A DNA stretch of 9,708 bases from an uncultured Oscillibacter sp. (GTDB lineage: Bacteria > Bacillota_A > Clostridia > Oscillospirales > Oscillospiraceae): the NCBI GenBank assembly GCA_948902155.1, contig CAQVQZ010000075.1, positions 1 to 9,708 on the forward strand, given 5' to 3'. Positions 2 through 9,708 of the stretch are shown here, piece by piece. The translations under genes were made by a program, and so were the position numbers. Position 1 is the first letter of the stretch. Each line of letters starts with the position of its first letter. A model generated the notes under the pieces. That model saw nothing but the letters and a program-made list of their open reading frames with translations, did not search any database and was not told the DNA's origin.

Positions 2-2353
2 AACAACGGGACCATCCACGGCCGGAAGGACGTGGGCGGCATCGTGGGCCAGGCGGAGCCCTGGCTGGTGCTGGACCCCGGTTCCCAGACCCTGGACCGC
101 CTGCGCACGGAGCTGGACACCCTGGACCGGCTGATCGACCGGGCCCTGAGCGACGCCGGGCACACCGGAGATCAAATCTCCGCCCGGCTCACCGCCATGG
201 GGAACTTCACCGGCGCGGCCAGGGAGAGCTCCAAGCGCCTGCTGGACCACACCGTGGACTTTGTGGACGAAAACGTGGCGGAGGTCAACACTCTGGCCGC
301 CGACGTGACCAACGCCCTGGACAAGATATCCCCCGCTATGGACGACCTGTCCGGCGCGGGAACGAGGCTGGAGGATTTGTCCCGGCAGCTGGACCGGGCC
401 CTTCGGGACCTGGAGGACGCGTCGGAGTCCGGCGGGGCGGTCTTTGATATCCTCCGCTCCTCCGCCGGGGACCTGCGTCAGGGCCGGACGGAGCTGCAAA
501 CAGCGATGCAGGAGTTCCGGGCGGCGCTGGACGCCATCCACAGCGCGGTGCTCCCCGGCGGATTCCCCGCTCTTCCCTCCCTGGGGGAGCTGGCGGCGCT
601 CCGGGCGGAGGTCCGCAGGGCCTTTGAGCGTATGCAGGGCGCGGGGAACCGCCTGGACAGGGCCCTATCCGGCCTCCAGCGGGCCATGGAGGAGGCCGGG
701 GACATGTCGGACCAGCTGGGGGAAGCCCTGGAGGACCTTCAAGATACGGCCAAATCCTCCGCCGCCATCGGGCGGCTGCTGAAAAGCGCCTTCCGGTCCA
801 TCGGCGACGGCGTGGACCAGCTGACCCAGAACGGCCCCGCCCGGTTCACCAATCTGGGGGAGGAGGCCCGGGAGGCCGGGGGAAGCCTCTATGACGCTTT
901 GGGCGGGCTGTCCGGCGAGATGGAGGGGCTGAACTGCGCCGTTCAGAGCGGAAACCACACCCTGACCGGCGATCTGCGGGCCGTCAGCCGCCAGTTCAAC
1001 ATTATCTGCAATGTGATGATGGACGCCATAGACAACCTGGACCAGCGGCGGCAGGAGGGGGCCGGGGGCCTCGTTCAGGACACCTCCGACGAGGATATCG
1101 CCGCCACACGGGAGGGCAAGGTGGCCGACTGCTCCAACACCGGAGCCGTGGAGGGCGACCGGAACGTGGGCGGCGTCGCCGGAGCCGTGGCGGTGGAGGT
1201 GGACCTGGACCCGGAGGACGATGCCCGGCTGTCCCTCGGCGCTGCCTACGAGACCAAGGCGGTCCTCCAGGGCTGTGTGAGCCGGGGGAGCGTCACCGCC
1301 AAGAAGAACTGCGCCGGGGGAATCGCGGGCCGGATGGACCTGGGAGCCGCCCTGGACTGCCGGAGCTATGGCCCGGTGACCAGCACCGGGGGAAACTACG
1401 TGGGCGGCGTCGCCGGGTGGGCGGACGCCTCCGTCCGGAGCTGCTGGGCCAAGAATACCCTGTCCGGCGGGAACTACGTGGGCGGTATCGCCGGATGGGC
1501 CGGACGCCTGCAAGACTGCCGGGCCATCGCCACCATCCCGGAGGGAACGGAGTACCTGGGAGCCGTGGCCGGATGGGCGGAGGAGGGCCTGTCCGGAAAC
1601 TGCTTCGTGAACACCGGCTGGGCCGGTGTGGACGGCGTCAGCTACGCGGGCCGGGCGGAGCCCGTACCCTTTGAGGAGCTGGCCGCCCTGCCCGATGTCC
1701 CCGCAGAGTTCACCGCCTTCACCCTGACCCTGACGGCGGATGGAGAGACGGCGGCTCAGCTCCCCTTCTTTTACGGGGACGACCTGACCCGCCTCACTCT
1801 CCCCGAGGTGCCGGAGAAGGAGGGCTGCTATGGCGTGTGGCCGGAGTTCGACGCCTCCGGCGTCCGCTCTGACATTACGGTAGAGGCGGTGTATACCCCC
1901 TGGGTCACCCTCCTGGCCAGCCAGGAGACCCAGGAGGGCAAGCTGGCGCTGGCCCTTGCAGAGGGCAGGTTTACCGAGGAGGCGGTCCTCCACATCCAGC
2001 CCGCCGCGCTGTCCTCCACGGCCCCAACGGAGGGCGTGCTGTGGGACGTTTCCCTCACCGGGACAGACCTGGAACAGGGGGAGGACGTGACGCTGCGCCT
2101 TTTGAACACCACGGGGGGCCGGGCTGAGGTCCGGCGGTATCAGGACGGACAGTGGGTCCTCCTGGACGCCGAGGCCAACGGCAGTTACCTGATCGTGACG
2201 ATGCGGGGCCCCTGCGGAACCTTCAACGTCGCTCCCGCCCAGGGCATTCTGTGGATGATTCCCGCCGCCGTAAGCGGCGGGGCCGCGCTGACGGCGCTTG
2301 CGCTGATTGCGGGTAAGCGCCAACGGGCGAAAAAGAACGCCAAGGCGAAGTAA
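2..2353 (+). CDS. Large surface protein with GLUG-type repeats and a long helical region, C-terminally anchored (5' end outside window)
   Basis: The frame is open from base 2, with a GLUG-like motif (VGGIVGQ) at residues 11-17, so the true start lies upstream and the GTG at 32 is only an internal codon; 783 residues are visible. Residues about 25-345 are almost wholly helical and heptad-like, rich in Leu, Asp, Arg and Gly, with a Pro-rich break (PGGFPALPSLGE) near 182. GLUG-type repeats resume at about 373-530 (VGGVAG, AGGIAG, VGGIAGW, LGAVAGW). Two beta-rich segments follow (about 555-640 and 650-745), the second resembling Ig-like modules of clostridial surface proteins. Residues 749-771 form a hydrophobic helix, followed by a basic tail (KRQRAKKNAKAK). 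No LPXTG motif is present, so anchoring is by the membrane helix. GLUG repeats occur in bacterial surface and adhesin-like proteins; an adhesive or structural role is inference. The signal peptide would be upstream. Confidence 0.85.
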   Translation, partial: NNGTIHGRKDVGGIVGQAEPWLVLDPGSQTLDRLRTELDTLDRLIDRALSDAGHTGDQISARLTAMGNFTGAARESSKRLLDHTVDFVDENVAEVNTLAADVTNALDKISPAMDDLSGAGTRLEDLSRQLDRALRDLEDASESGGAVFDILRSSAGDLRQGRTELQTAMQEFRAALDAIHSAVLPGGFPALPSLGELAALRAEVRRAFERMQGAGNRLDRALSGLQRAMEEAGDMSDQLGEALEDLQDTAKSSAAIGRLLKSAFRSIGDGVDQLTQNGPARFTNLGEEAREAGGSLYDALGGLSGEMEGLNCAVQSGNHTLTGDLRAVSRQFNIICNVMMDAIDNLDQRRQEGAGGLVQDTSDEDIAATREGKVADCSNTGAVEGDRNVGGVAGAVAVEVDLDPEDDARLSLGAAYETKAVLQGCVSRGSVTAKKNCAGGIAGRMDLGAALDCRSYGPVTSTGGNYVGGVAGWADASVRSCWAKNTLSGGNYVGGIAGWAGRLQDCRAIATIPEGTEYLGAVAGWAEEGLSGNCFVNTGWAGVDGVSYAGRAEPVPFEELAALPDVPAEFTAFTLTLTADGETAAQLPFFYGDDLTRLTLPEVPEKEGCYGVWPEFDASGVRSDITVEAVYTPWVTLLASQETQEGKLALALAEGRFTEEAVLHIQPAALSSTAPTEGVLWDVSLTGTDLEQGEDVTLRLLNTTGGRAEVRRYQDGQWVLLDAEANGSYLIVTMRGPCGTFNVAPAQGILWMIPAAVSGGAALTALALIAGKRQRAKKNAKAK
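1388..1621 (+). repeat. Tandem 78-bp (26-residue) GLUG repeat units
   Basis: Three consecutive units start at 1388, 1466 and 1544, exactly 78 bases apart, and encode GGNYVGGVAGW, GGNYVGGIAGW and GTEYLGAVAGW. The first two are nearly identical over about 35 bases at the DNA level, which suggests recent duplication or conversion; the third has diverged. A looser unit (AGGIAG) precedes them with a 29-residue spacing. The strict period fits one turn of a repetitive beta fold. Confidence 0.8.
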
Positions 2354-2627: not shown

Positions 2628-3605
2628 ATGCGGAAAGAACCCATGCGGCTGCTGGAAGCCGCCGGTATGCTTTTGATTCTGGCGCTGGCGGCGGCTTTTC
2701 TCTATGTCCTGCTGCTTTATCCCGGCGACGTCTCCGCCCGGCAGACGGAGGACCGGCGCGTCTTCGGCGCGACCTACATGACCATGAACAACCCGTATTA
2801 CCAAGTCCTGGACAACTGCCTGCGCTCGGAGATCGAGGCCAACGGGGACATTCTCCTGACACGGGACGCCGCCATGGACCAAAGCCGCCAGAATGAGGAG
2901 ATTCGGGAGCTCATAGCCTCTGGGGCCCAGGTGATTTTCCTGACCCCCGTAGAGTGGGATACCGTCCGGTCGGGGCTGGAGGCCGCGGCGGAGGCCGGAG
3001 TGCCGGTGATCGTGGTGGACGCGCCGGTGCGGGATACGGAGCTGGCCGCATGCTCCATTCTCTCGGACAACTATCAGGCGGGCGTTTTGTGCGCGGAGCA
3101 TTTGATGTCCGTCCGGGACAAAGCCAAGATCATTTTGCTGGAACATATTTCCGCCAGCTCCGGCGTGGAGCGCATCCAGGGCTTCCGAGACGCCGTGGAG
3201 GGGCATGAGGGGTTTACCATTCTGGCCTCCGGCGAGTCCGACGGACAAATCGAAAACGCCATGCCGGTGATGGAGGACCTGCTCCGCCAGGCCCTGGAGG
3301 CGGACGTGCTCATGGCCCTCAACGACCCCAGCGCCTTCGGCGGGCTTGCCGCCATCGAAGGGGCGGGGCTCAGCGGGCGGTTCCTCATTTACAGCGTGGA
3401 CGGCTCTCCGGAGGCCAAGGCCCTGGTCAGCGACGGGCTCATGACCGGCACCTGCGCCCAGTTCCCCACCCGCATCGCCAGGGAGGCGGCGGCTCAGGGC
3501 TACCGGGCTCTGGAGGGCGGCTGTGACCGGCGGGAGATCATCCTGCCGGTGGAGCTGCTGACGAAGGAGAACGTACAGCGCTACGGAACGGACGGGTGGC
3601 AGTGA
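2628..3605 (+). CDS. Membrane-anchored RbsB-like (type I periplasmic fold) sugar-binding sensor protein
   Basis: The protein has 325 residues. ATG 2628 is chosen because AGGAGG (2616-2621) lies six bases upstream; an in-frame TTG at 2613 would overlap this site. Residues 12-30 form one hydrophobic helix without a lipobox cysteine, so it is a membrane anchor or a signal peptide (possible cleavage near VSA, 35-37). The rest matches the Peripla_BP_4/RbsB class: the strand and loop VFGATYMTMNNPYYQV (45-60) typical of these sugar binders, the ligand-site loops LNDPSA (231-236) and VDGSPEA (257-263), and Gln278. It is full length for the family. Its TGA overlaps the kinase ATG by one base, and no ABC permease or ATPase gene is nearby. 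A role as extracytoplasmic sensor feeding the kinase, as for ChvE-VirA, LuxP-LuxQ and XylFII-LytS, is inferred. The ligand is unknown, probably a mono- or disaccharide or a sugar derivative. Confidence 0.85.
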   Translation: MRKEPMRLLEAAGMLLILALAAAFLYVLLLYPGDVSARQTEDRRVFGATYMTMNNPYYQVLDNCLRSEIEANGDILLTRDAAMDQSRQNEEIRELIASGAQVIFLTPVEWDTVRSGLEAAAEAGVPVIVVDAPVRDTELAACSILSDNYQAGVLCAEHLMSVRDKAKIILLEHISASSGVERIQGFRDAVEGHEGFTILASGESDGQIENAMPVMEDLLRQALEADVLMALNDPSAFGGLAAIEGAGLSGRFLIYSVDGSPEAKALVSDGLMTGTCAQFPTRIAREAAAQGYRALEGGCDRREIILPVELLTKENVQRYGTDGWQ

Positions 3606-4936
3606 TGGACAACGAAAAAACCTTATCCAGCCTCTCCCGGCTGATGTTCGCTTTGAATCTGGCGATCATCCTGTTCTATTCCCTGGTCTGCCTGACCACG
3701 ACGCTGCGGGTCTGCGATTCCTTCGGCGCGTACAGCTTCCTGTCCTCCGCCGGGCAGGTCCCTCCGCCGCCCTGGCGGATGCCTTTGTGGGCCTTGGGAC
3801 AGTATCTGCTGCTGTGCGCTGTCAGCTTCGGGAAAAACCGCTGGGGCATTGAGCGCTTCGAGGTGCGGCTGCTGGTGTGTTTGGTGGAGATTCTGCTGTG
3901 CCTGGGCGTTACCGCTTCCCTGGAATTTTACTACAGCGGCGCGGCGCTGCTGGTGCTGGCGGACCTGGTCCACTATGTCCGCAACAGCTTTTACCGCATC
4001 TGTTTTACGGCGGCGCTGATTCTGTTGTTTTCCTTCGGGCGCTATGAGATTTTGTATCCCCTGACGGGGCGCATTGCGTTCAGCGCCTATCTGGACTACT
4101 ATAACCAGACGGTCCGGAGCTTTTTCGCCGGAACGGAAAGCCTGCTGATCTGTTTGAACGTGCTGCTGTTCGTCCTGTCCATGATTCTGCTCTTTACGGG
4201 CCAGAAGGCGGAAAACAGCCGCATCCGCAAGCTCAACAAGCAGCTCAACCAAGCCAACGACCGCCTCCGGGACTATGCCTTTGAGCTGGAGCGCATGACG
4301 GAGGTCCGGGAGCGGAACCGGCTGGCCCGGGAGATTCACGACACCCTGGGCCACACCCTGACGGGCATCATCATGGGCTCCGACGCGGGGCTGGCCCTCT
4401 TCGACGCCGCGCCGGAGGAGGCGAAAAAACGCATCCAAGTGGTGGCCCAGGCGGCACGGGACGGGCTCAACGATGTGCGCCGCTCCATCAAGGCCCTGCG
4501 GCCCGACGCCCTGGAAAACACCACCCTGGCGGAGGCGCTGGAGACGATGATTTCCAACTTCAAGGCGACGACCTCGGCGGAGGTCTTCTATGACCAGCAG
4601 GACGGACCTCTGGTGTTTGCCCAGGACGAGGAGGACACCCTGTACCGGGTGGTGCAGGAGAGCATGACCAACGCGGTCCGGCACGGCCATGCTACGGAGA
4701 TACACATTTCCCTGACCCGGCGGGACAACCTCCTGACCATCGACGTGCGGGACAACGGCCTGGGCGGCGGGGAGGACGTCAAGGAGGGCTTCGGCCTGCG
4801 GCACATGCGGGAGCGGCTGGAGCTGCTGGGAGGCTCCCTGACCTTTGGGAACCGGGAGACATTGGAGGAGGACGGAGAGCGGGGCTTTTACATTCTGGTG
4901 AGCCTGCCCATCCGGGAAAAGGAGGAGGAAGCATGA
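3605..4936 (+). CDS. Six-TM sensor histidine kinase, HisKA_3 (NarL/LiaS-type) family
   Basis: The protein has 443 residues from ATG 3605, which overlaps the upstream TGA (TGATG), so translation is probably coupled; an in-frame GTG at 3596 is the alternative start. Six hydrophobic segments lie at about 13-35, 60-76, 89-107, 109-124, 130-150 and 179-199. If the N-terminus is cytoplasmic, only two short loops (about 36-59 and 150-178) face outside, and there is no ligand-binding domain. A helical linker (about 202-240) leads to the HisKA_3 dimerisation box EIHDTLGH, with the expected phospho-acceptor His245. The ATPase domain shows the N box QESMTNAVRHG (Asn356), the D/G box DNGLGG, and GFGLRHMRERLELLGG. 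The short external part fits a kinase that reads bound proteins; the sugar-binding proteins encoded on both sides of the kinase-regulator pair are the obvious candidates. It should phosphorylate the regulator encoded next. Confidence 0.93.
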   Translation: MDNEKTLSSLSRLMFALNLAIILFYSLVCLTTTLRVCDSFGAYSFLSSAGQVPPPPWRMPLWALGQYLLLCAVSFGKNRWGIERFEVRLLVCLVEILLCLGVTASLEFYYSGAALLVLADLVHYVRNSFYRICFTAALILLFSFGRYEILYPLTGRIAFSAYLDYYNQTVRSFFAGTESLLICLNVLLFVLSMILLFTGQKAENSRIRKLNKQLNQANDRLRDYAFELERMTEVRERNRLAREIHDTLGHTLTGIIMGSDAGLALFDAAPEEAKKRIQVVAQAARDGLNDVRRSIKALRPDALENTTLAEALETMISNFKATTSAEVFYDQQDGPLVFAQDEEDTLYRVVQESMTNAVRHGHATEIHISLTRRDNLLTIDVRDNGLGGGEDVKEGFGLRHMRERLELLGGSLTFGNRETLEEDGERGFYILVSLPIREKEEEA

Positions 4937-5604
4937 TCCGAGTCTTGATCGTAGACGACCAGGAGCTGTTCCGGGAGAGTTTGAAGGTGGTCCTCAGCGT
5001 CAGCCCCGGCATTGAGGTCGTCGGCGCGGCCTCCGGCGTTCAGGAGGCCCTGAAAAGCGCCGCCGCCTGCCGCCCGGACGTGGTGCTGATGGACATCCGT
5101 ATGCCCGGTATGGACGGGGTGGAGGGGACCCGGCTGTTTAAAGAGCGCTGGCCCAATATGAAGGTCGTGGTGCTGACCACCTTTGACGATGACGAGTATG
5201 TTTTCGGGGCTTTGAAAAACGGGGCCAGCGGGTATCTCCTCAAGGGGAGCAGCGTCTCCGAATTGTCCAAGGCCATCCAGGTCGTCCACGAGGGCGGGGC
5301 CATGCTGAATCCGGAGATCGCCAGCAAGGCCATTCAGCAGTTTTCCAGCATGGCGAAGGGGACCGCCTCCCTCCAGGTGGACCAGCGGGGCGAGGCGGAG
5401 CTGAGCAAGAGCGAATGGCAGGTGATTCGGACCGTGGGCCGGGGACTGTCCAACAAGGAGATCGCCGGGGAACTGTGCCTCTCCGAGGGGACGGTGCGGA
5501 ACACCATCAGCGGCATCCTCAGCAAGCTGGACCTCCGGGACCGGACCCAGCTGGCCATCTGGGCCGTGCAGACCGGCGCGGTGAATCAGGGGATGTTCCC
5601 GTGA
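4933..5604 (+). CDS. NarL/FixJ-type response regulator (REC plus LuxR HTH)
   Basis: The protein has 223 residues. Its ATG overlaps the kinase stop (ATGA, four bases), with GGAGGAGGA at 4921-4929 as ribosome site. The receiver domain covers about 1-118: acidic pair Asp8/Asp9, phospho-acceptor Asp54 in VLMDIRMPGMDG, switch Thr82/Thr83 in VVVLTTFDDD, and Lys104 in YLLKG. A linker of about 35 residues leads to a LuxR/GerE helix-turn-helix at about 157-213 (LSKSEWQVIRTVGRGLSNKEIA, then LCLSEGTVRNTISGILSKL). All key residues are intact, so it should be a working partner of the HisKA_3 kinase. Regulators of this class bind short inverted repeats as dimers. The repeated TGTCA/TGACA sites ahead of the PTS operon are the best candidate target (inference). 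Confidence 0.95.
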   Translation: MIRVLIVDDQELFRESLKVVLSVSPGIEVVGAASGVQEALKSAAACRPDVVLMDIRMPGMDGVEGTRLFKERWPNMKVVVLTTFDDDEYVFGALKNGASGYLLKGSSVSELSKAIQVVHEGGAMLNPEIASKAIQQFSSMAKGTASLQVDQRGEAELSKSEWQVIRTVGRGLSNKEIAGELCLSEGTVRNTISGILSKLDLRDRTQLAIWAVQTGAVNQGMFP

Positions 5605-6848
5605 AGCGCCGCCTTGGAATCGCGGCCCTAGCCGCCGTTTTGATTGCCGCCGGGCTGTTTTGGGGGCTGGAGTCCCGGCGGGAGCCGGTGCTGACGGTGG
5701 GCGTTTACGCCGGGAGCTACTGGCAGACTCCCAACGGGGACTGCTATCAGATTCTGGACGACGCCATCGCCCTGTTTCAGGAAGCGCACCCCGGCGTGCG
5801 GGTGGAGTACGTCAGCGGCATCCCCACGGACGGCTACAGCGAGTGGCTGGCGGGGCGGATTTTGAAGGGAACGGAGCCGGACCTCTACTTCGTTTTACCG
5901 GAGGATTTCAACCTCCTGGCCTCCTCCGGGGCCCTGGCGGAGCTGGACGGCTTCATGGCCTCCGATGCGGAGTTTGACGCCGGCGCTTACTACGAGCCCT
6001 GCCTCCGGGCGGGGCGGCTGGGGGGGAAGCAGTACGCCCTGCCCCAGGAGAGCGTCCCCACCATCATGTTTGTCAACAAGACCTTGCTGGAGAGCCGGGG
6101 GATCCCCCTGCCGGACAACCGCTGGACCTGGGAGGATTTTTATGGCATCTGCGCCCAGGTGACGGACCTGGACAGCCGGACCTTCGGCGTCTACGACTAC
6201 ACCTGGCAGAACGCCCTCTACGCCAACGGGGCCAGCCTGTTTTCCGAGGACGGGACGGCCTGCTATCTGGCGGACGAGCGGGTCCAGGCGGCGGTGCGGT
6301 TTGCCAGGAGCCTGACGGACCTGAACGGGGGTTACACCGTCACGGCCCGGGACTTCGACTTGGGCCGGGTGGCCTTCCGGCCCTTCCTGTTCTCCGAGTA
6401 CCGGGCCTATCAGCCCTACCCCTGGCGGGTGCGGAAATACTCCGGCTTCGAGTGGGACTGCGTGTGCATGCCCGCCGGGCCCGACGGGGACAATGTTTCC
6501 GAACTCCACACCATGCTCCTGGGCGTCAGCGCCCGGAGCGGGCGTCAGGAGCTGGCCTGGGAATTGGCGAGACTGCTGTCTGCGGACGATGCCGTACAGG
6601 GCGACTTGTATGCTTATTCCCATGGCATCTCCCCCGTGCGGCGGGTGGCGGAAAACGCCAGGGACCTGGACCTGCCCGGCAGCTTCCCGGCAGAGCTCAT
6701 CCGGGAGATCATGGGCGCCGCCGTGACGGCTCCCCGCTTCGAGCGCAGCGACCAGGCCATGATGATGGCGGAGAGCGCCGTGGCGGAGGCCGGGGACCAG
6801 CGGATGCTGATCGCCCAGAGGGAGATCAACGTCTTTTTGAATCCGTGA
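5601..6848 (+). CDS. MalE-like extracellular solute-binding protein (SBP_bac_1 class), N-terminally membrane anchored
   Basis: The protein has 415 residues. GTG 5601 is chosen because it overlaps the regulator stop (GTGA, four bases), has AGGGGA at 5588-5593 seven bases upstream, and directly precedes a KRR plus hydrophobic signal/anchor (residues 2-22). No lipobox cysteine is present, which is unusual because Gram-positive transporter-linked SBPs are normally lipoproteins. Family features are clear: LTVGVYAG (31-38), a helix ending FQEAHPGVRVEYVSG, the hinge-region segment GRILKGTEPDLYFVLPEDF (85-103), GGKQYALPQESVPTIMFVNK (141-160), and the typical RWTWEDF (174-180). Length is normal. No ABC membrane or ATPase genes accompany it, and it is the last gene before a strong terminator. 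I therefore infer a second sensory input to the kinase rather than uptake, although it could serve an ABC transporter encoded elsewhere. The ligand is probably a carbohydrate. Confidence 0.85.
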   Translation: MKRRLGIAALAAVLIAAGLFWGLESRREPVLTVGVYAGSYWQTPNGDCYQILDDAIALFQEAHPGVRVEYVSGIPTDGYSEWLAGRILKGTEPDLYFVLPEDFNLLASSGALAELDGFMASDAEFDAGAYYEPCLRAGRLGGKQYALPQESVPTIMFVNKTLLESRGIPLPDNRWTWEDFYGICAQVTDLDSRTFGVYDYTWQNALYANGASLFSEDGTACYLADERVQAAVRFARSLTDLNGGYTVTARDFDLGRVAFRPFLFSEYRAYQPYPWRVRKYSGFEWDCVCMPAGPDGDNVSELHTMLLGVSARSGRQELAWELARLLSADDAVQGDLYAYSHGISPVRRVAENARDLDLPGSFPAELIREIMGAAVTAPRFERSDQAMMMAESAVAEAGDQRMLIAQREINVFLNP

Positions 6849-6959: not shown

Positions 6960-7019
6960 TGTCAGCCGTGCTTGAACAGGCCGTAAATTCATGACAAATG
7001 TCACCCGGAAGTTGTGACA
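6960..7019 (+). promoter_or_regulatory. Candidate operator: clustered TGTCA/TGACA half-sites
   Basis: Half-sites lie at 6960-6964 (TGTCA), 6992-6996 (TGACA), 6999-7003 (TGTCA) and 7015-7019 (TGACA). The middle pair forms the palindrome TGACA-AA-TGTCA. TGTCAC (6999-7004) and GTGACA (7014-7019) form an inverted repeat with a nine-base gap, and TGACAAA is directly repeated 23 bases apart (6992, 7015), about two helical turns. A further TGACA lies at 7071-7075. The layout suits dimeric regulators such as the NarL-type protein encoded upstream; the assignment is inference. Confidence 0.5.
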
Positions 7020-7050: not shown

Positions 7051-7056
7051 TAAGAT
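7051..7056 (+). promoter_or_regulatory. Possible -10 of the PTS operon promoter
   Basis: TAAGAT lies 41 bases before the EIIA start and would give a leader of about 35 bases. The matching -35 region (around 7027-7033, GGTGCGC) is far from TTGACA, as expected for an activator-dependent promoter. The operator's inverted repeat would then be centred near -54. No -24/-12 sigma-54 signature was found. Confidence 0.35.
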
Positions 7057-7097
7057 GTACCCATCCTGAATGACACGACAGAAAGGGAGAAGACAAT

Positions 7098-7517
7098 ATG
7101 CGGTATCATTTGATCGTCAGCCACGGCGGCTTTGCCTCCGGATTGGCGGAGGCCCTGGGGATGCTGATGGGGAAGCGGGAGGACGTGCTCCAGGTCTCCT
7201 TCCGGGACGGGATGGCCCTCCCCGCCTTCCAGGAGCAGGTCCGGCAGGTCACCGCCCCCATCACGGCGGCGGACGAGGTCCTGGTCCTGGCGGACCTGGT
7301 GAACGGGTCTCCCCTGACCACCACCATGACGGTTCTGGCGGAGGGGCCGGGCCTTCAAAACGTCCGGGCGGTGGGCGGTATGAACCTTCCCATGGCCGTA
7401 GCGGCCATCGAGGGGGAGGACGACCCCCTGGACGAGGCGGTGGAGGCCATGAAAGCCTGCGCCGTGGACGAAGTCAAGCAGTTCAGTACCCGCGTAGACA
7501 GTGAAGACGATATCTGA
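7098..7517 (+). CDS. PTS mannose-family EIIA subunit
   Basis: The protein has 139 residues, a stand-alone cytoplasmic EIIA of the mannose/fructose/sorbose family (PF03610). His9 in IVSHGGFASGL is the expected phospho-acceptor from HPr, and VLVLADLVNGSPLTTTM (about 61-77) matches the conserved 'DLxGGSP' strand-loop, with Asn in place of the first Gly. ATG 7098 follows AAGGGAGA (7083-7090) by seven bases. It is the first gene of an A-B-C-D operon. It passes phosphate to the EIIB encoded next, which phosphorylates the sugar imported by EIIC/EIID. The C-terminus is acidic (VDSEDDI). EIIA is separate here rather than fused to EIIB as in E. coli ManX. The substrate cannot be read from the sequence. 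Confidence 0.93.
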   Translation: MRYHLIVSHGGFASGLAEALGMLMGKREDVLQVSFRDGMALPAFQEQVRQVTAPITAADEVLVLADLVNGSPLTTTMTVLAEGPGLQNVRAVGGMNLPMAVAAIEGEDDPLDEAVEAMKACAVDEVKQFSTRVDSEDDI

Positions 7518-7542
7518 ATTACATTTTTAGGAGGAGCTACTT

Positions 7543-8037
7543 ATGATTTCTTTCATCCGTATCGACGACCGCATGATCCACGGCCAGACCTGCACCCGCT
7601 GGTCCCTGGAGTACCCCTGCACCGGCCTGGTGGCCGTCAATGACGCCGCCGCCAGCACCCCGGTCCTGAAAGCCGCCTACAAGAACGCCAGCGACAAGAA
7701 GACCTTCGTCTGGACCCTGGCGGACTGGCAGGCCAAGAAGGAGAAGGTCCTGGCCAGCCAGGATCAGTATTTCCTCATCGCCAAGAACCCGGTGGACATG
7801 GCAAAGGTCCTGCTGGACCAGCCCTTTGACCCCGGTATCAAGGAAATCTGCGTCGGCCCCTGCAACGACCGCCCCGGCGCGGTGAAGCTGGGCAACAACC
7901 AGTCCATCACCCAGGAAGAGGCGGAAGCCTTTGAGAAGCTCATGAAGGCGGGCTACAACATCGAGTTTGCCCTCATCAAGGAGGCCGCGATCGGAAACTG
8001 GAAGAAGTTCCGGGGCCAGTTTGGTTTCAACGGCTAA
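7543..8037 (+). CDS. PTS mannose-family EIIB subunit
   Basis: The protein has 164 residues, the usual length for stand-alone EIIB of this family (PF03830, PTSIIB_sorb). The N-terminal signature IRIDDRMIHGQ carries the phospho-acceptor His13. The rest fits the family, including VAVNDAAA (29-36), where 'NDxxA' is typical. ATG 7543 follows GGAGGAG by about seven bases, 25 bases after the EIIA stop. The protein is cytoplasmic, receives phosphate from EIIA His9 and donates it to the incoming sugar. EIIB contributes to specificity, but no known residue pattern separates mannose, fructose, sorbose, GalNAc or glycated amino-acid substrates by eye. Confidence 0.95.
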   Translation: MISFIRIDDRMIHGQTCTRWSLEYPCTGLVAVNDAAASTPVLKAAYKNASDKKTFVWTLADWQAKKEKVLASQDQYFLIAKNPVDMAKVLLDQPFDPGIKEICVGPCNDRPGAVKLGNNQSITQEEAEAFEKLMKAGYNIEFALIKEAAIGNWKKFRGQFGFNG

Positions 8038-8048
8038 GCCCACTCCCG

Positions 8049-8086
8049 CCTCCGGGCCGGGCTGCTCACCTCTCCCGGCCCGGAGG
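8049..8086 (+). promoter_or_regulatory. Perfect 13-bp intercistronic hairpin between EIIB and EIIC
   Basis: CCTCCGGGCCGGG (8049-8061) and CCCGGCCCGGAGG (8074-8086) are perfect reverse complements with a 12-base loop. No T-run follows, so it is unlikely to be a full intrinsic terminator. A processing or 3'-stabilising element that raises the level of the EIIA/EIIB message over EIIC/EIID is more likely. Confidence 0.7.
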
Positions 8087-8087
8087 T

Positions 8088-8105
8088 TCCTCCCAAACAG
8101 GAGGA
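8088..8105 (+). promoter_or_regulatory. Small hairpin sequestering a strong Shine-Dalgarno sequence
   Basis: TCCTCC (8088-8093) can pair with GGAGGA (8100-8105) across a six-base loop (CAAACA), which hides the AGGAGG at 8099-8104. The same CCTCC could compete for GGAGG in the 3' arm of the preceding hairpin (8082-8086), although the gap there is too short for both to stack locally. The exposed AGGAGG sits eight bases before a TTG (8113) that is out of frame with EIIC. Confidence 0.45.
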
Positions 8106-8143
8106 TTCCCCTTTGAAACTTCAAGAGAAAGGAATCACTTGTT

Positions 8144-8992
8144 ATGACCATCAATGTTGTGCAAGCCGCCATTCTGGGCCTGTGCGCCTGTCTGTCCTCC
8201 ATGCCGGGCCTGGGCGGCACCACCTTCGGAAACTACACCCTGGGCCGCCCCCTCATCGGCGGTCTGGTCTGCGGCCTGGTACTGGGCAACGTCCCCATGG
8301 GCATCATGCTGGGCGCGGCGGTACAGATCGTGTACATCGCCCTGGTCACCCCCGGCGGCACCGTGTCCGCCGACGTGCGGTCCATCTCCTACATCGGCAT
8401 CCCTCTTGCCATGCTGTACGTCTCTTCTGTGGGGCTGGACCCCGCCACCGCCGAGGCCCAGGGCTTCGCGGTCTCCATGGCCGCAACCGTCGGCACCGTG
8501 GGCACGGTCCTGTTCTACGGCACCGCCACCATCAACCTGGTCTGGCAGCACATGGGCCTGGAGTGGGTCAAAAAGGGCCAGCTGAAAAAGCTCTATCTGG
8601 TGGACATGGTCCTGCCCTGGATTTCCCACATTCTCTGCTCCTTCATCCCCACCTTCATCATGTGCTACTTCGGCTCCAGCATGGTCCAGCTCATCAAGGA
8701 CTACCTGCCCATGGACGGCCTGGCCATGAAGACCCTCTTTACCGTGGGCTCCCTGCTTCCCGCCGTGGGCGTAGCCATCCTTCTTAAACAGGTAGTGTCC
8801 AAGCCTGTGGACTTCCTGACCTTCTTCTTTGGCTTCACCCTCTGCGCCTGCATGCACCTGAATCTGATCGGCTGCGCCATTGTGGGCGGCTTCTTCGCCA
8901 TCATCAACTACAACATCCGCTGCCTCGCCCTGCGGCCCGTTGCCGCCACAGCGGCTATTGGCGCGGGAGACGACGATGAGGAGGATATCTGA
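8144..8992 (+). CDS. PTS mannose-family EIIC membrane subunit
   Basis: The protein has 282 residues (PF03609, EII-Sor), a polytopic membrane protein that forms the sugar channel with EIID. Typical features are PGLGGTTFGNYTLGRPLIGGLVCG cut here to its core PLIGGLVCGLVLGN (36-49), MGIMLGAAVQIVYIAL (52-67), VTPGGTVSADV (68-78), and CMHLNLIGCAIVGGFFAIIN near the C-terminus. An in-frame TGA at 8114 makes ATG 8144 the first possible ATG start. Its own ribosome site, AAAGGA (8128-8133), is ten bases away and weaker than the out-of-frame AGGAGG at 8099. The acidic tail (GDDDEEDI) is partly imposed by the EIID Shine-Dalgarno (AGGAGG, 8979-8984) lying within its last codons. Confidence 0.95.
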   Translation: MTINVVQAAILGLCACLSSMPGLGGTTFGNYTLGRPLIGGLVCGLVLGNVPMGIMLGAAVQIVYIALVTPGGTVSADVRSISYIGIPLAMLYVSSVGLDPATAEAQGFAVSMAATVGTVGTVLFYGTATINLVWQHMGLEWVKKGQLKKLYLVDMVLPWISHILCSFIPTFIMCYFGSSMVQLIKDYLPMDGLAMKTLFTVGSLLPAVGVAILLKQVVSKPVDFLTFFFGFTLCACMHLNLIGCAIVGGFFAIINYNIRCLALRPVAATAAIGAGDDDEEDI

Positions 8993-8994
8993 CC

Positions 8995-9708
8995 ATGAAA
9001 AAGCTTTCGAAAAAGGCACTGAACCACTCCTTCCTCAACTGGTTCTACGGCCACCTGACCTGCTTCTCCCAGGAGCACATGCAGACCTTCGGCTACATGA
9101 CCGCCATGCTCCCCATTATCCAGGAGCTCTATGACACCAACGAGGAACAGACCGAGAAGACCCTGACCTATTCCACCTTCTTCAACACCGAGCCGCAGGT
9201 GGGCTCCATCGTGGTGGGCATCACCGCCGGTATGGAAGAAGCCCGGGCCAACGGCGAACCCGTGGACGACGAAACCATCAACGGCATCCGGGCCGGACTC
9301 ATGGGCCCCCTGGCTGGCATCGGCGACTCCCTGGTGGTGGGCACCCTGCTCCCCATCCTGCTGGGCATCGCCCTGGGCCTCTCCGGCGGCGGTTCCCCCT
9401 TAGGCGCGATTTTCTACATCCTGGTGTGGAACATCTGCATGTTCCTTATCATGCGCTTCATGTACTTCAAGGGCTATGAGCTGGGCGGCAAGGCCGTAGA
9501 GATACTCGTCGGCGAAAAAGCCAACGCTATACGGGACTCCATCATCATGCTGGGCACCATGGTCATCGGCGGCGTGACGGCCAGCTGGATCAACATCACG
9601 ACCTCCTTCCAGATGCTGGGCAGCGACGGCAGCGTCATCGTGGACCTCCAGAAAACCCTGAACGACGTGTATCCCTCCATCCTCAGCGCCGTGTTTGTGC
9701 TGATCTGC
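8995..9708 (+). CDS. PTS mannose-family EIID membrane subunit (3' end outside window)
   Basis: The first 238 residues are visible and the frame is open to the right edge; the family is usually about 270-300 residues (PF03613, EIID-AGA). ATG 8995 lies two bases after the EIIC stop, with AGGAGG at 8979-8984 ten bases upstream. Diagnostic segments are the N-terminal SFLNWFYGHLTCFSQEHMQ, FNTEPQVGSIVVGITAGMEEA (about 63-82), and GLMGPLAGIGDSLVVGTLLP (about 101-120), followed by hydrophobic segments (about 135-160 and 185-200). EIID is found only in the mannose superfamily and joins EIIC as the membrane channel. Later genes of the operon, which might reveal the substrate, lie beyond the window. Confidence 0.94.
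   Translation, partial: MKKLSKKALNHSFLNWFYGHLTCFSQEHMQTFGYMTAMLPIIQELYDTNEEQTEKTLTYSTFFNTEPQVGSIVVGITAGMEEARANGEPVDDETINGIRAGLMGPLAGIGDSLVVGTLLPILLGIALGLSGGGSPLGAIFYILVWNICMFLIMRFMYFKGYELGGKAVEILVGEKANAIRDSIIMLGTMVIGGVTASWINITTSFQMLGSDGSVIVDLQKTLNDVYPSILSAVFVLIC

What the first reader, a model, noticed from the sequence alone, without database searches (positions are those of the whole stretch)
2628..6848. Two different orphan binding proteins bracket one two-component system
An RbsB-like (type I fold) and a MalE-like (SBP_bac_1) binding protein flank an intact HisKA_3 kinase and NarL-type regulator. Every junction overlaps (TGATG, ATGA, GTGA), so all four are expected to be made together. 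No ABC permease or ATPase is present and neither binding protein has a lipobox cysteine, which points to membrane-tethered sensors rather than transporter parts. Single binding-protein/kinase pairs are known (ChvE-VirA, LuxP-LuxQ, TorT-TorS, XylFII-LytS). Two unrelated folds feeding one kinase that has only short outside loops would be a dual-input, four-component sensor that I cannot match to a described system.
Basis: partly seen in the sequence, partly recalled or inferred. Interest (0 to 1): 0.8.

Follow-up and report, generated by a model that had tools for sequence, protein, structure and literature searches.

The report
LevQRST-type four-part sugar sensor operon
Four genes that make two outside sugar-binding proteins, a membrane kinase and its gene switch sit next to a mannose-type sugar uptake system that they most likely turn on; this is a gut-bacterial relative of a sensor already known from the tooth-decay bacterium Streptococcus mutans.

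Summary
Window 2628-6848 holds four overlapping genes: an RbsB-like binding protein, a six-helix HisKA_3 kinase, a NarL-type regulator and a MalE-like binding protein. Sensor plus PTS is the layout of Streptococcus mutans levTSRQ-levDEFG (LevQRST, PMC3043104), the published four-component system with two binding proteins, induced by fructose and mannose. Residue positions published for LevQ fit the MalE-like family and not the other proteins. The four-gene order holds in 86 of 88 complete loci from several Bacillota families. A perfect inverted repeat, TGACAnnTGTCA, lies upstream of IIA in 35 of 47 loci (control mean 0.03); in the window its inferred position is -72 to -59, as reported for the S. 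mutans fruA dyad. In 11 of 81 loci checked, the sensor sits near a CUT2 ABC transporter, some with D-lyxose/D-mannose isomerase-type and PfkB genes; this points to mannose or fructose and suggests that the transporter was swapped. Verdict: a new member of a known kind. The swap, the operator and the wide spread are the new parts.

The parts
2628..3605 (+). LevT-like membrane-anchored RbsB-type (type I fold) binding protein, 325 aa
   Evidence: Pfam Peripla_BP_4; RbsB structures 2ioy/1dbp by sequence; N-terminal helix 4-30 then alternating strands and helices, pLDDT 84
3605..4936 (+). LevS-like histidine kinase, 443 aa, six predicted membrane helices, HisKA_3 plus HATPase_c
   Evidence: model helices 2-39, 58-80, 85-106, 112-124, 128-146, 168-265, mean pLDDT 76; best Foldseek match DesK
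4933..5604 (+). LevR-like NarL-family response regulator, 223 aa
   Evidence: Response_reg plus GerE
5601..6848 (+). LevQ-like membrane-anchored MalE-type (SBP_bac_1) binding protein, 415 aa, GTG start
   Evidence: its family fits published LevQ residue positions
6992..7003 (.). TGACAAATGTCA inverted repeat, inferred binding site of the regulator
   Evidence: exact in 35 of 47 loci upstream of IIA (window included); control mean 0.03, max 1
7015..7019 (+). TGACA half-site 11 bases after the inverted repeat
   Evidence: 19 of 33 loci have a further TGACA 8-11 bases on, 11 of 33 none in the next 30 bases; composite site in front of this PTS in 10 of 14 genomes
7051..7056 (+). TAAGAT, candidate -10 box of the PTS promoter (transcription start inferred near 7063)
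   Evidence: inference from sequence
7098..7517 (+). PTS IIA, mannose family (LevD position)
   Evidence: EIIA-man
7543..8037 (+). PTS IIB, sorbose/mannose family (LevE position)
   Evidence: PTSIIB_sorb
8144..8992 (+). PTS IIC, mannose/sorbose family (LevF position)
   Evidence: EII-Sor
8995..9708 (+). PTS IID, mannose family (LevG position), runs off the window
   Evidence: EIID-AGA

Best explanation
This is a LevQRST-type four-component system of an Oscillibacter-like gut bacterium, joined to the mannose-family PTS that it controls. The RbsB-like protein (LevT position) and the MalE-like protein (LevQ position) are held to the outer face of the membrane by their N-termini and bind an extracellular hexose, most likely mannose and/or fructose. 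They signal through the membrane helices and short loops of the LevS-like kinase. The kinase phosphorylates the LevR-like regulator, which binds the inverted repeat TGACAnnTGTCA plus a TGACA half-site upstream of the IIA gene and activates the PTS. Shown here: gene content, order, conservation, operator, co-occurrence, fingerprint fit of the MalE-like family to LevQ. Shown by others in S. mutans: need for LevQ and LevT, induction by fructose and mannose, binding of LevR to the levD and fruA promoters. Inferred: the ligand in this species, the physical contacts, and that this repeat is the regulator's site.
For: Same order of gene types and same neighbour as levT-levS-levR-levQ-levDEFG. LevS is class HPK7 and LevR NarL type in S. 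mutans; the window has HisKA_3 and a NarL-type regulator. Published LevQ positions C161, E170, C188, F292, C296, C336: the spacing 18-104-4 between the sites of E170, C188, F292 and C296 occurs in 44 of 91 MalE-like proteins; F283 is kept in 91 of 91, C184 in 85, C287 in 76. Without gaps 5 of 6 fit in 15 of 91 MalE-like, 0 of 88 RbsB-like and 0 of 90 kinases; of 300 random residue sets none reached 5 in a third (31) of the MalE-like set, where the real set did so once. Order kept in 86 of 88 loci. Operator in 35 of 47 upstream IIA regions, Markov control mean 0.03, max 1. Composite operator in front of this PTS in 10 of 14 genomes; reversed pattern 0 of 14. In the window the 14-bp dyad lies at inferred -72 to -59, as reported for S. 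mutans fruA. Kinase and MalE-like protein in the identical 17 of 299 genomes. PfkB genes in 8 and D-lyxose isomerase family genes in 5 of the 11 ABC-linked loci, and an isomerase gene overlapping the MalE-like gene in L137.
Against: No Streptococcus lev sequence could be fetched, so identity to LevQRST was not measured directly. LevT positions (C12, N60, D72, C149) did not tell the RbsB-like from the MalE-like family. The window protein itself is in the 37 of 91 with spacing 99, not 104, between C184 and F283, and has F at the C161 site and R at the E170 site. 44 of 91 MalE-like proteins fit only 1 or 2 of the 6 LevQ residues without gaps. LevS was described with up to 5 membrane helices; the model here shows 6. 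12 of 47 upstream regions lack the exact palindrome, and 11 of 33 palindromes lack a near half-site. The transcription start is inferred from a -10-like box. Ligand not tested.
Confidence: 0.88

Rival explanations
1. A new dual-input sensor unrelated to any described system.
For: Two different folds on one kinase is unusual; no NCBIfam equivalog in the rows shown reaches its cut-off for any of the four proteins.
Against: LevQRST has the same parts, order and neighbour, and LevQ's residue positions fit the MalE-like family.
Confidence: 0.03
2. The two proteins are the binding subunits of ABC transporters encoded elsewhere and only happen to lie beside a two-component system.
For: Both are of transporter-type families; 11 of 81 loci checked have CUT2 ABC genes near by; in L135 a transporter-type RbsB with RbsA and RbsC stands next to the kinase.
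Against: No ABC gene seen in the window; strict order in 86 of 88 loci; the neighbouring transporter is a PTS in 59 of 91 units; 10 of the 11 ABC-linked loci have a further RbsB gene; in S. mutans the only known role is signalling.
Confidence: 0.04
3. The system is LevQRST-like in mechanism, but the signal is another sugar (for instance an amino sugar, an oligosaccharide for the MalE-like protein, or an Amadori sugar), and mannose/fructose is wrong for this species.
For: Mannose-family PTS systems take many sugars (recalled), and the nearest NCBIfam models, all under cut-off, are galactosamine/N-acetylgalactosamine and mannose types; the nearest solved relatives of the MalE-like protein include an arabino-oligosaccharide binder; the position matching RbsB Arg90 (numbering recalled) is A, T or S in nearly all.
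Against: Inducers in S. mutans are fructose and mannose; D-lyxose/D-mannose isomerase-type and fructokinase-type genes in several ABC-linked loci (Pfam above cut-off, NCBIfam below cut-off).
Confidence: 0.3

Closest known systems
LevQRST (levTSRQ-levDEFG) of Streptococcus mutans
   Same: Two binding proteins around a kinase-regulator pair, HPK7-type kinase, NarL-type regulator, mannose-class PTS directly downstream, membrane-tethered binding proteins, kinase with little exposed sequence, no ABC transporter near, activator site upstream of the target promoter
   Different: S. mutans also controls fruA/fruB (fructan hydrolases), none of which is in this window; host is a gut Oscillibacter-like bacterium; some relatives elsewhere sit near a CUT2 ABC transporter instead of the PTS
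XylFII-LytS, ChvE-VirA, LuxP-LuxQ, TorT-TorS (recalled)
   Same: A periplasmic-type binding protein passes a signal to a kinase
   Different: One binding protein per kinase, other kinase types and sensor domains
BvgS/EvgS (recalled)
   Same: Two Venus-flytrap units act on one kinase
   Different: Both units are of one fold and fused to the kinase
DesK-DesR
   Same: Best Foldseek match of the kinase model; HisKA_3/NarL pair (recalled)
   Different: Senses membrane fluidity, has no binding proteins (recalled)

Membership tests
LevQRST four-component system | two sugar-binding proteins flanking a kinase and a regulator, in the order SBP-HK-RR-SBP | tested here: met
   window; 86 of 88 complete loci
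LevQRST four-component system | mannose-class PTS (levDEFG) directly downstream | tested here: met
   IIA-IIB-IIC-IID at 7098-9708; PTS near by in 59 of 91 units, downstream in 44
LevQRST four-component system | HPK7 kinase and NarL-type regulator | tested here: met
   HisKA_3 plus HATPase_c; Response_reg plus GerE; S. mutans classes in PMC3353171 (passages). That HPK7 equals HisKA_3 is recalled
LevQRST four-component system | LevQ residues C161, E170, C188, F292, C296, C336 | tested here: met
   met at family level: 15 of 91 MalE-like proteins fit 5 of 6 without gaps, none of 88 RbsB-like or 90 kinases. The window protein keeps C184, F283 and C287 but has F at the C161 site and R at the E170 site
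LevQRST four-component system | LevT residues C12, N60, D72, C149 | tested here: inconclusive
   best fits spread alike over both families; C142 of the window kept in 60 of 88
LevQRST four-component system | membrane-anchored binding proteins, kinase with little exposed sequence | tested here: met
   hydrophobic N-termini; kinase model with short links 40-57, 107-111 and 147-167 between membrane helices
LevQRST four-component system | regulator site: dyad about -72 to -59 of the target promoter | tested here: met
   6991-7004 relative to an inferred start at 7063; S. mutans fruA dyad position from PMC9241797 (passage); its letters were not seen
LevQRST four-component system | direct sequence homology to the S. 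mutans proteins | not tested
   no Streptococcus lev sequence could be reached
LevQRST four-component system | induction by fructose/mannose that needs both binding proteins | not testable with these tools
   needs experiment

The most novel reading that the evidence does not exclude
LevQRST is not a streptococcal oddity but a widespread, transporter-independent mannose/fructose sensor of gut Bacillota. It works mostly through one dedicated operator per genome. In at least two separated branches the sensor and operator were kept while the PTS was replaced by a CUT2 ABC transporter, in several loci with a mannose-isomerase/fructokinase route, so the uptake chemistry changed under an unchanged sensor.
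Probability: 0.6. Interest if true: 0.5.

Novelty: new member of a known kind. Interest (0 to 1): 0.33.

Why it matters
It ties a large set of unnamed gut-bacterial kinase and 'orphan binding protein' genes (179 relatives in one genome scan) to a genetically studied system, gives a likely signal (mannose/fructose) and target, and supplies a regulator site that can be tested at once. The ABC-linked loci offer natural experiments on how one sensor was kept while the transporter beside it changed, and L135 on whether a transport binding protein can take over the sensor's role.

Tried and rejected
Whole-genome look-up of the window: no genome held. Early literature searches with generic terms found nothing or, in the listing, unrelated three-component systems. 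The 2006 discovery paper is not held. In one search the LevQ fingerprint was first tried on the RbsB-like protein, a wrong assignment corrected after reading that the order is levTSRQ; redone. The LevT fingerprint does not discriminate. The small conserved gene after IID (cluster c9, 17 loci) has no Pfam (one member scanned) or NCBIfam (three members) match; left open. Rows dropped: only the best 80 of 179 genome contigs relatives were kept by the tool; of 91 units, 3 (L062, L065, L078) lack RBS and/or HK at contig ends. Of the 21 hits, ten were fetched with wide flanks; the loci were not examined for gene order. ABC genes were looked for in 81 of the 91 units; MalFG-type permeases were not searched for beyond the window. 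Complexes of the proteins could not be modelled. Fold search was run on the kinase model only.
Full report
1. The observation. RbsB-like 2628-3605, kinase 3605-4936, regulator 4933-5604 and MalE-like 5601-6848 are all open on the + strand and overlap at TGATG, ATGA and GTGA. Pfam gives Peripla_BP_4, HisKA_3 plus HATPase_c, Response_reg plus GerE, and SBP_bac_1. Both binding proteins begin with a hydrophobic helix and have no lipobox cysteine in the window. In the family, 20 of 91 MalE-like proteins match a lipobox regex and 71 look like a plain membrane anchor; of 88 RbsB-like proteins 1 matches, 81 look like an anchor and 6 are too short to judge. The kinase model (mean pLDDT 76, pTM 0.44) has six membrane-type helices with short links, the last helix running on into the dimerisation helix.

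2. Directly downstream lie the genes of a mannose-family PTS: IIA 7098-7517, IIB 7543-8037, IIC 8144-8992, IID from 8995 to the window end. A search of genome contigs with the MalE-like alignment found 179 relatives, of which the best 80 loci were kept. Of 88 with all four genes, 86 keep the order RbsB-like, kinase, regulator, MalE-like on one strand; in L044 and L045 the first gene is turned round. Transport neighbours of the 91: PTS downstream 44, PTS upstream 15, CUT2 ABC (RbsA and RbsC) 11, other or cut by a contig end 21; ABC genes were looked for in 81 of the 91 only. In wider draws the MalE-like protein occurs in 21 of 346 genomes of one class and 70 of 314 of one order, both at E up to 1e-30.

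3. The known precedent. PMC3043104 describes S. mutans LevQRST. Seen of it: abstract, introduction, the first part of the localisation section, the sections on loss of function, point mutations, LevQ, cysteines and LevT, the discussion, and passages elsewhere. [quoted passage not shown] the operon levTSRQ lies immediately upstream of levDEFG, a fructose/mannose PTS. levD expression is 474 on fructose and 870 on mannose against 2.8 on glucose; it falls to 0.4 or less without LevQ, and to 91 and 84 without LevT (Tables 1 and 2). The authors name similar operons in six other species, including Clostridium acetobutylicum and Dorea longicatena. PMC3353171 (passages) classes LevS as HPK7 and LevR as NarL type.

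4. Is it a member? No Streptococcus sequence could be reached, so published residue positions were used. LevQ has C161, C188, C296, C336, E170 and F292 (supplement legend; text). In the MalE-like family the aligned sites of the first five in sequence order are window 157, 166, 184, 283 and 287 (C336 has no single aligned site). F283 is kept in 91 of 91, C184 in 85, C287 in 76; E is the commonest residue at 166 (47), and 6 loci have C at 157. The spacing 18-104-4 holds in 44 of 91, while 37 of 91, the window among them, have 99 in place of 104. Without gaps, 15 of 91 MalE-like proteins fit 5 of 6 residues, 24 fit 4, and 44 fit only 1 or 2; no RbsB-like protein exceeds 3 and no kinase exceeds 2. 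Of 300 random residue sets none reached 5 in the 31 MalE-like proteins used for that control, where the real set reached 5 in 1 of 31; mean fit 2.90 against a control mean of 1.87 and a highest control mean of 2.77. LevT positions do not discriminate. By gene order the RbsB-like gene is in the levT place and the MalE-like gene in the levQ place.

5. The operator. Upstream of IIA, 35 of 47 loci (window included) carry an exact TGACAnnTGTCA; Markov-shuffled upstream regions give a mean of 0.03 and never more than 1 in 200 rounds. Upstream of the sensor operon it is in 9 of 75. In 1.40 Mb of locus sequence only 56 such sites occur: 39 before IIA or IIB, 11 before an RbsB-type gene, 1 before another gene, 5 inside called genes (two of these, in L016 and L037, probably over-long start calls). 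Allowing one mismatch, 34 of 37 PTS-downstream and 13 of 14 PTS-upstream loci among the first 81 have a site before IIA or IIB; L002, counted as a miss there, has the exact site. Of 33 palindromes with enough flank, 19 have a further TGACA 8-11 bases on, 3 at 20-23, and 11 none in the next 30. The composite site occurs 12 times in 14 whole genomes: by coordinates ten lie in front of this PTS and two (one each in G013 and G014) elsewhere; three genomes have none; the reversed pattern gives 0 in 14. In the window the repeat is 6992-7003, the half-site 7015-7019 and a -10-like TAAGAT 7051-7056. With a start inferred at 7063, the 14-base dyad 6991-7004 falls at -72 to -59. A dyad at -72 to -59 is required for S. 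mutans fruA and is the likely LevR target (PMC9241797, passage); its letters were not seen. The best Foldseek match of the kinase model is DesK.

6. Linkage. In 299 genomes of the family of G010 the MalE-like protein and the kinase were found, at E up to 1e-60 and with only the best few candidates per genome scored by the tool, in the identical 17 genomes, 18 copies each. RbsB-like matches were in all 17 and in 10 more, nine of these weaker (about 206-231 bits) and one at 297 bits. By coordinates, 15 of 18 copies have all three genes together, two appear split by contig ends (G331, G297), and one (L135) has a transporter-type RbsB followed by RbsA and RbsC in the sensor's place. The 297-bit case (L136, G386) is a lone anchored RbsB-like gene with an exact palindrome upstream and no kinase or MalE-like partner found. 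In 150 genomes of the family of G002 both binding proteins occur in the same 4.

7. The ABC-linked variant. In two separated branches of the tree, the Faecousia group and a Lachnospiraceae group (L066, L068-L070), with L012 a further single case, the unit sits near RbsA/RbsC genes; 10 of these 11 loci show a further RbsB gene, L006 does not. All 11 have a site at 9 or 10 of 10 positions outside called genes, in nine of them upstream of a called gene (HAD before ABC in four, PfkB in one, RbsB-type before ABC in four). PfkB genes lie in 8 and D-lyxose isomerase family genes in 5 of the 11; an isomerase gene also lies in the PTS-linked L050 (families from one representative each, Pfam above cut-off, NCBIfam fructokinase and D-lyxose/D-mannose isomerase below cut-off). 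In L137 an isomerase gene overlaps the MalE-like gene. Mannose to fructose to fructose-6-phosphate is the natural reading (inference) and agrees with the S. mutans inducers.

8. Mechanism and status. Shown here: anatomy, conservation, operator, co-occurrence. Shown in S. mutans by others: both binding proteins shape the response, LevR binds the target promoters, fructose and mannose induce. Inferred: the same in this bacterium, contact through membrane helices, the ligand. Novelty: a new member of a known kind; the wide spread, the operator letters and the apparent transporter swap were not seen in what I read of the papers found, most of which I saw as listings only.

Noticed in passing
window 2-2353 (+): Gene upstream of the sensor: long coiled-coil-like stretch, then VGG-type repeats and a C-terminal hydrophobic helix with lysine-rich tail; looks like a surface protein. 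Only sub-threshold family matches. Large genes of another cluster (c15) lie near the sensor in six other loci.
   Followed up: no
L135 2058-9093: Transporter-type RbsB-RbsA-RbsC directly followed by kinase-regulator-MalE-like, without a separate sensor RbsB: the transport protein may double as sensor.
   Followed up: partly
L136 1344-2312 (-): Lone membrane-anchored RbsB-like sensor gene with the exact palindrome at 2639 upstream and no kinase or MalE-like partner found in that genome.
   Followed up: partly
L025, L027-L029, L031, L032, L034, L048: In Erysipelotrichaceae and a Lachnospiraceae locus the palindrome also lies before the sensor operon itself, suggesting self-activation.
   Followed up: partly
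cluster c8, e.g. L002 14655-15494: A Cof-type HAD sugar phosphatase lies in 43 of 81 loci, often after the transporter genes, in PTS and ABC settings alike.
   Followed up: partly
cluster c9, e.g. L016 14246-14608: Small protein of about 93-120 aa right after IID in 17 loci without a Pfam or NCBIfam match in the members scanned.
   Followed up: no
L044, L045: The RbsB-like gene is turned round and divergent from the kinase while the rest of the unit is kept.
   Followed up: no
L052, L053, L057, L061 (Selenomonas): The upstream PTS is of a clearly different mannose-type subfamily (IIC 32-36 bits, IID about 130 bits against the window's proteins), so the partner PTS itself varies.
   Followed up: no
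L005 9370-11151, L013, L016: A gene for PTS enzyme I lies near the PTS and HAD genes.
   Followed up: no
G013:C34:174556-174582 and G014:C13:36039-36065: Two composite operator sites that lie away from the PTS locus, possible further targets of the regulator.
   Followed up: no
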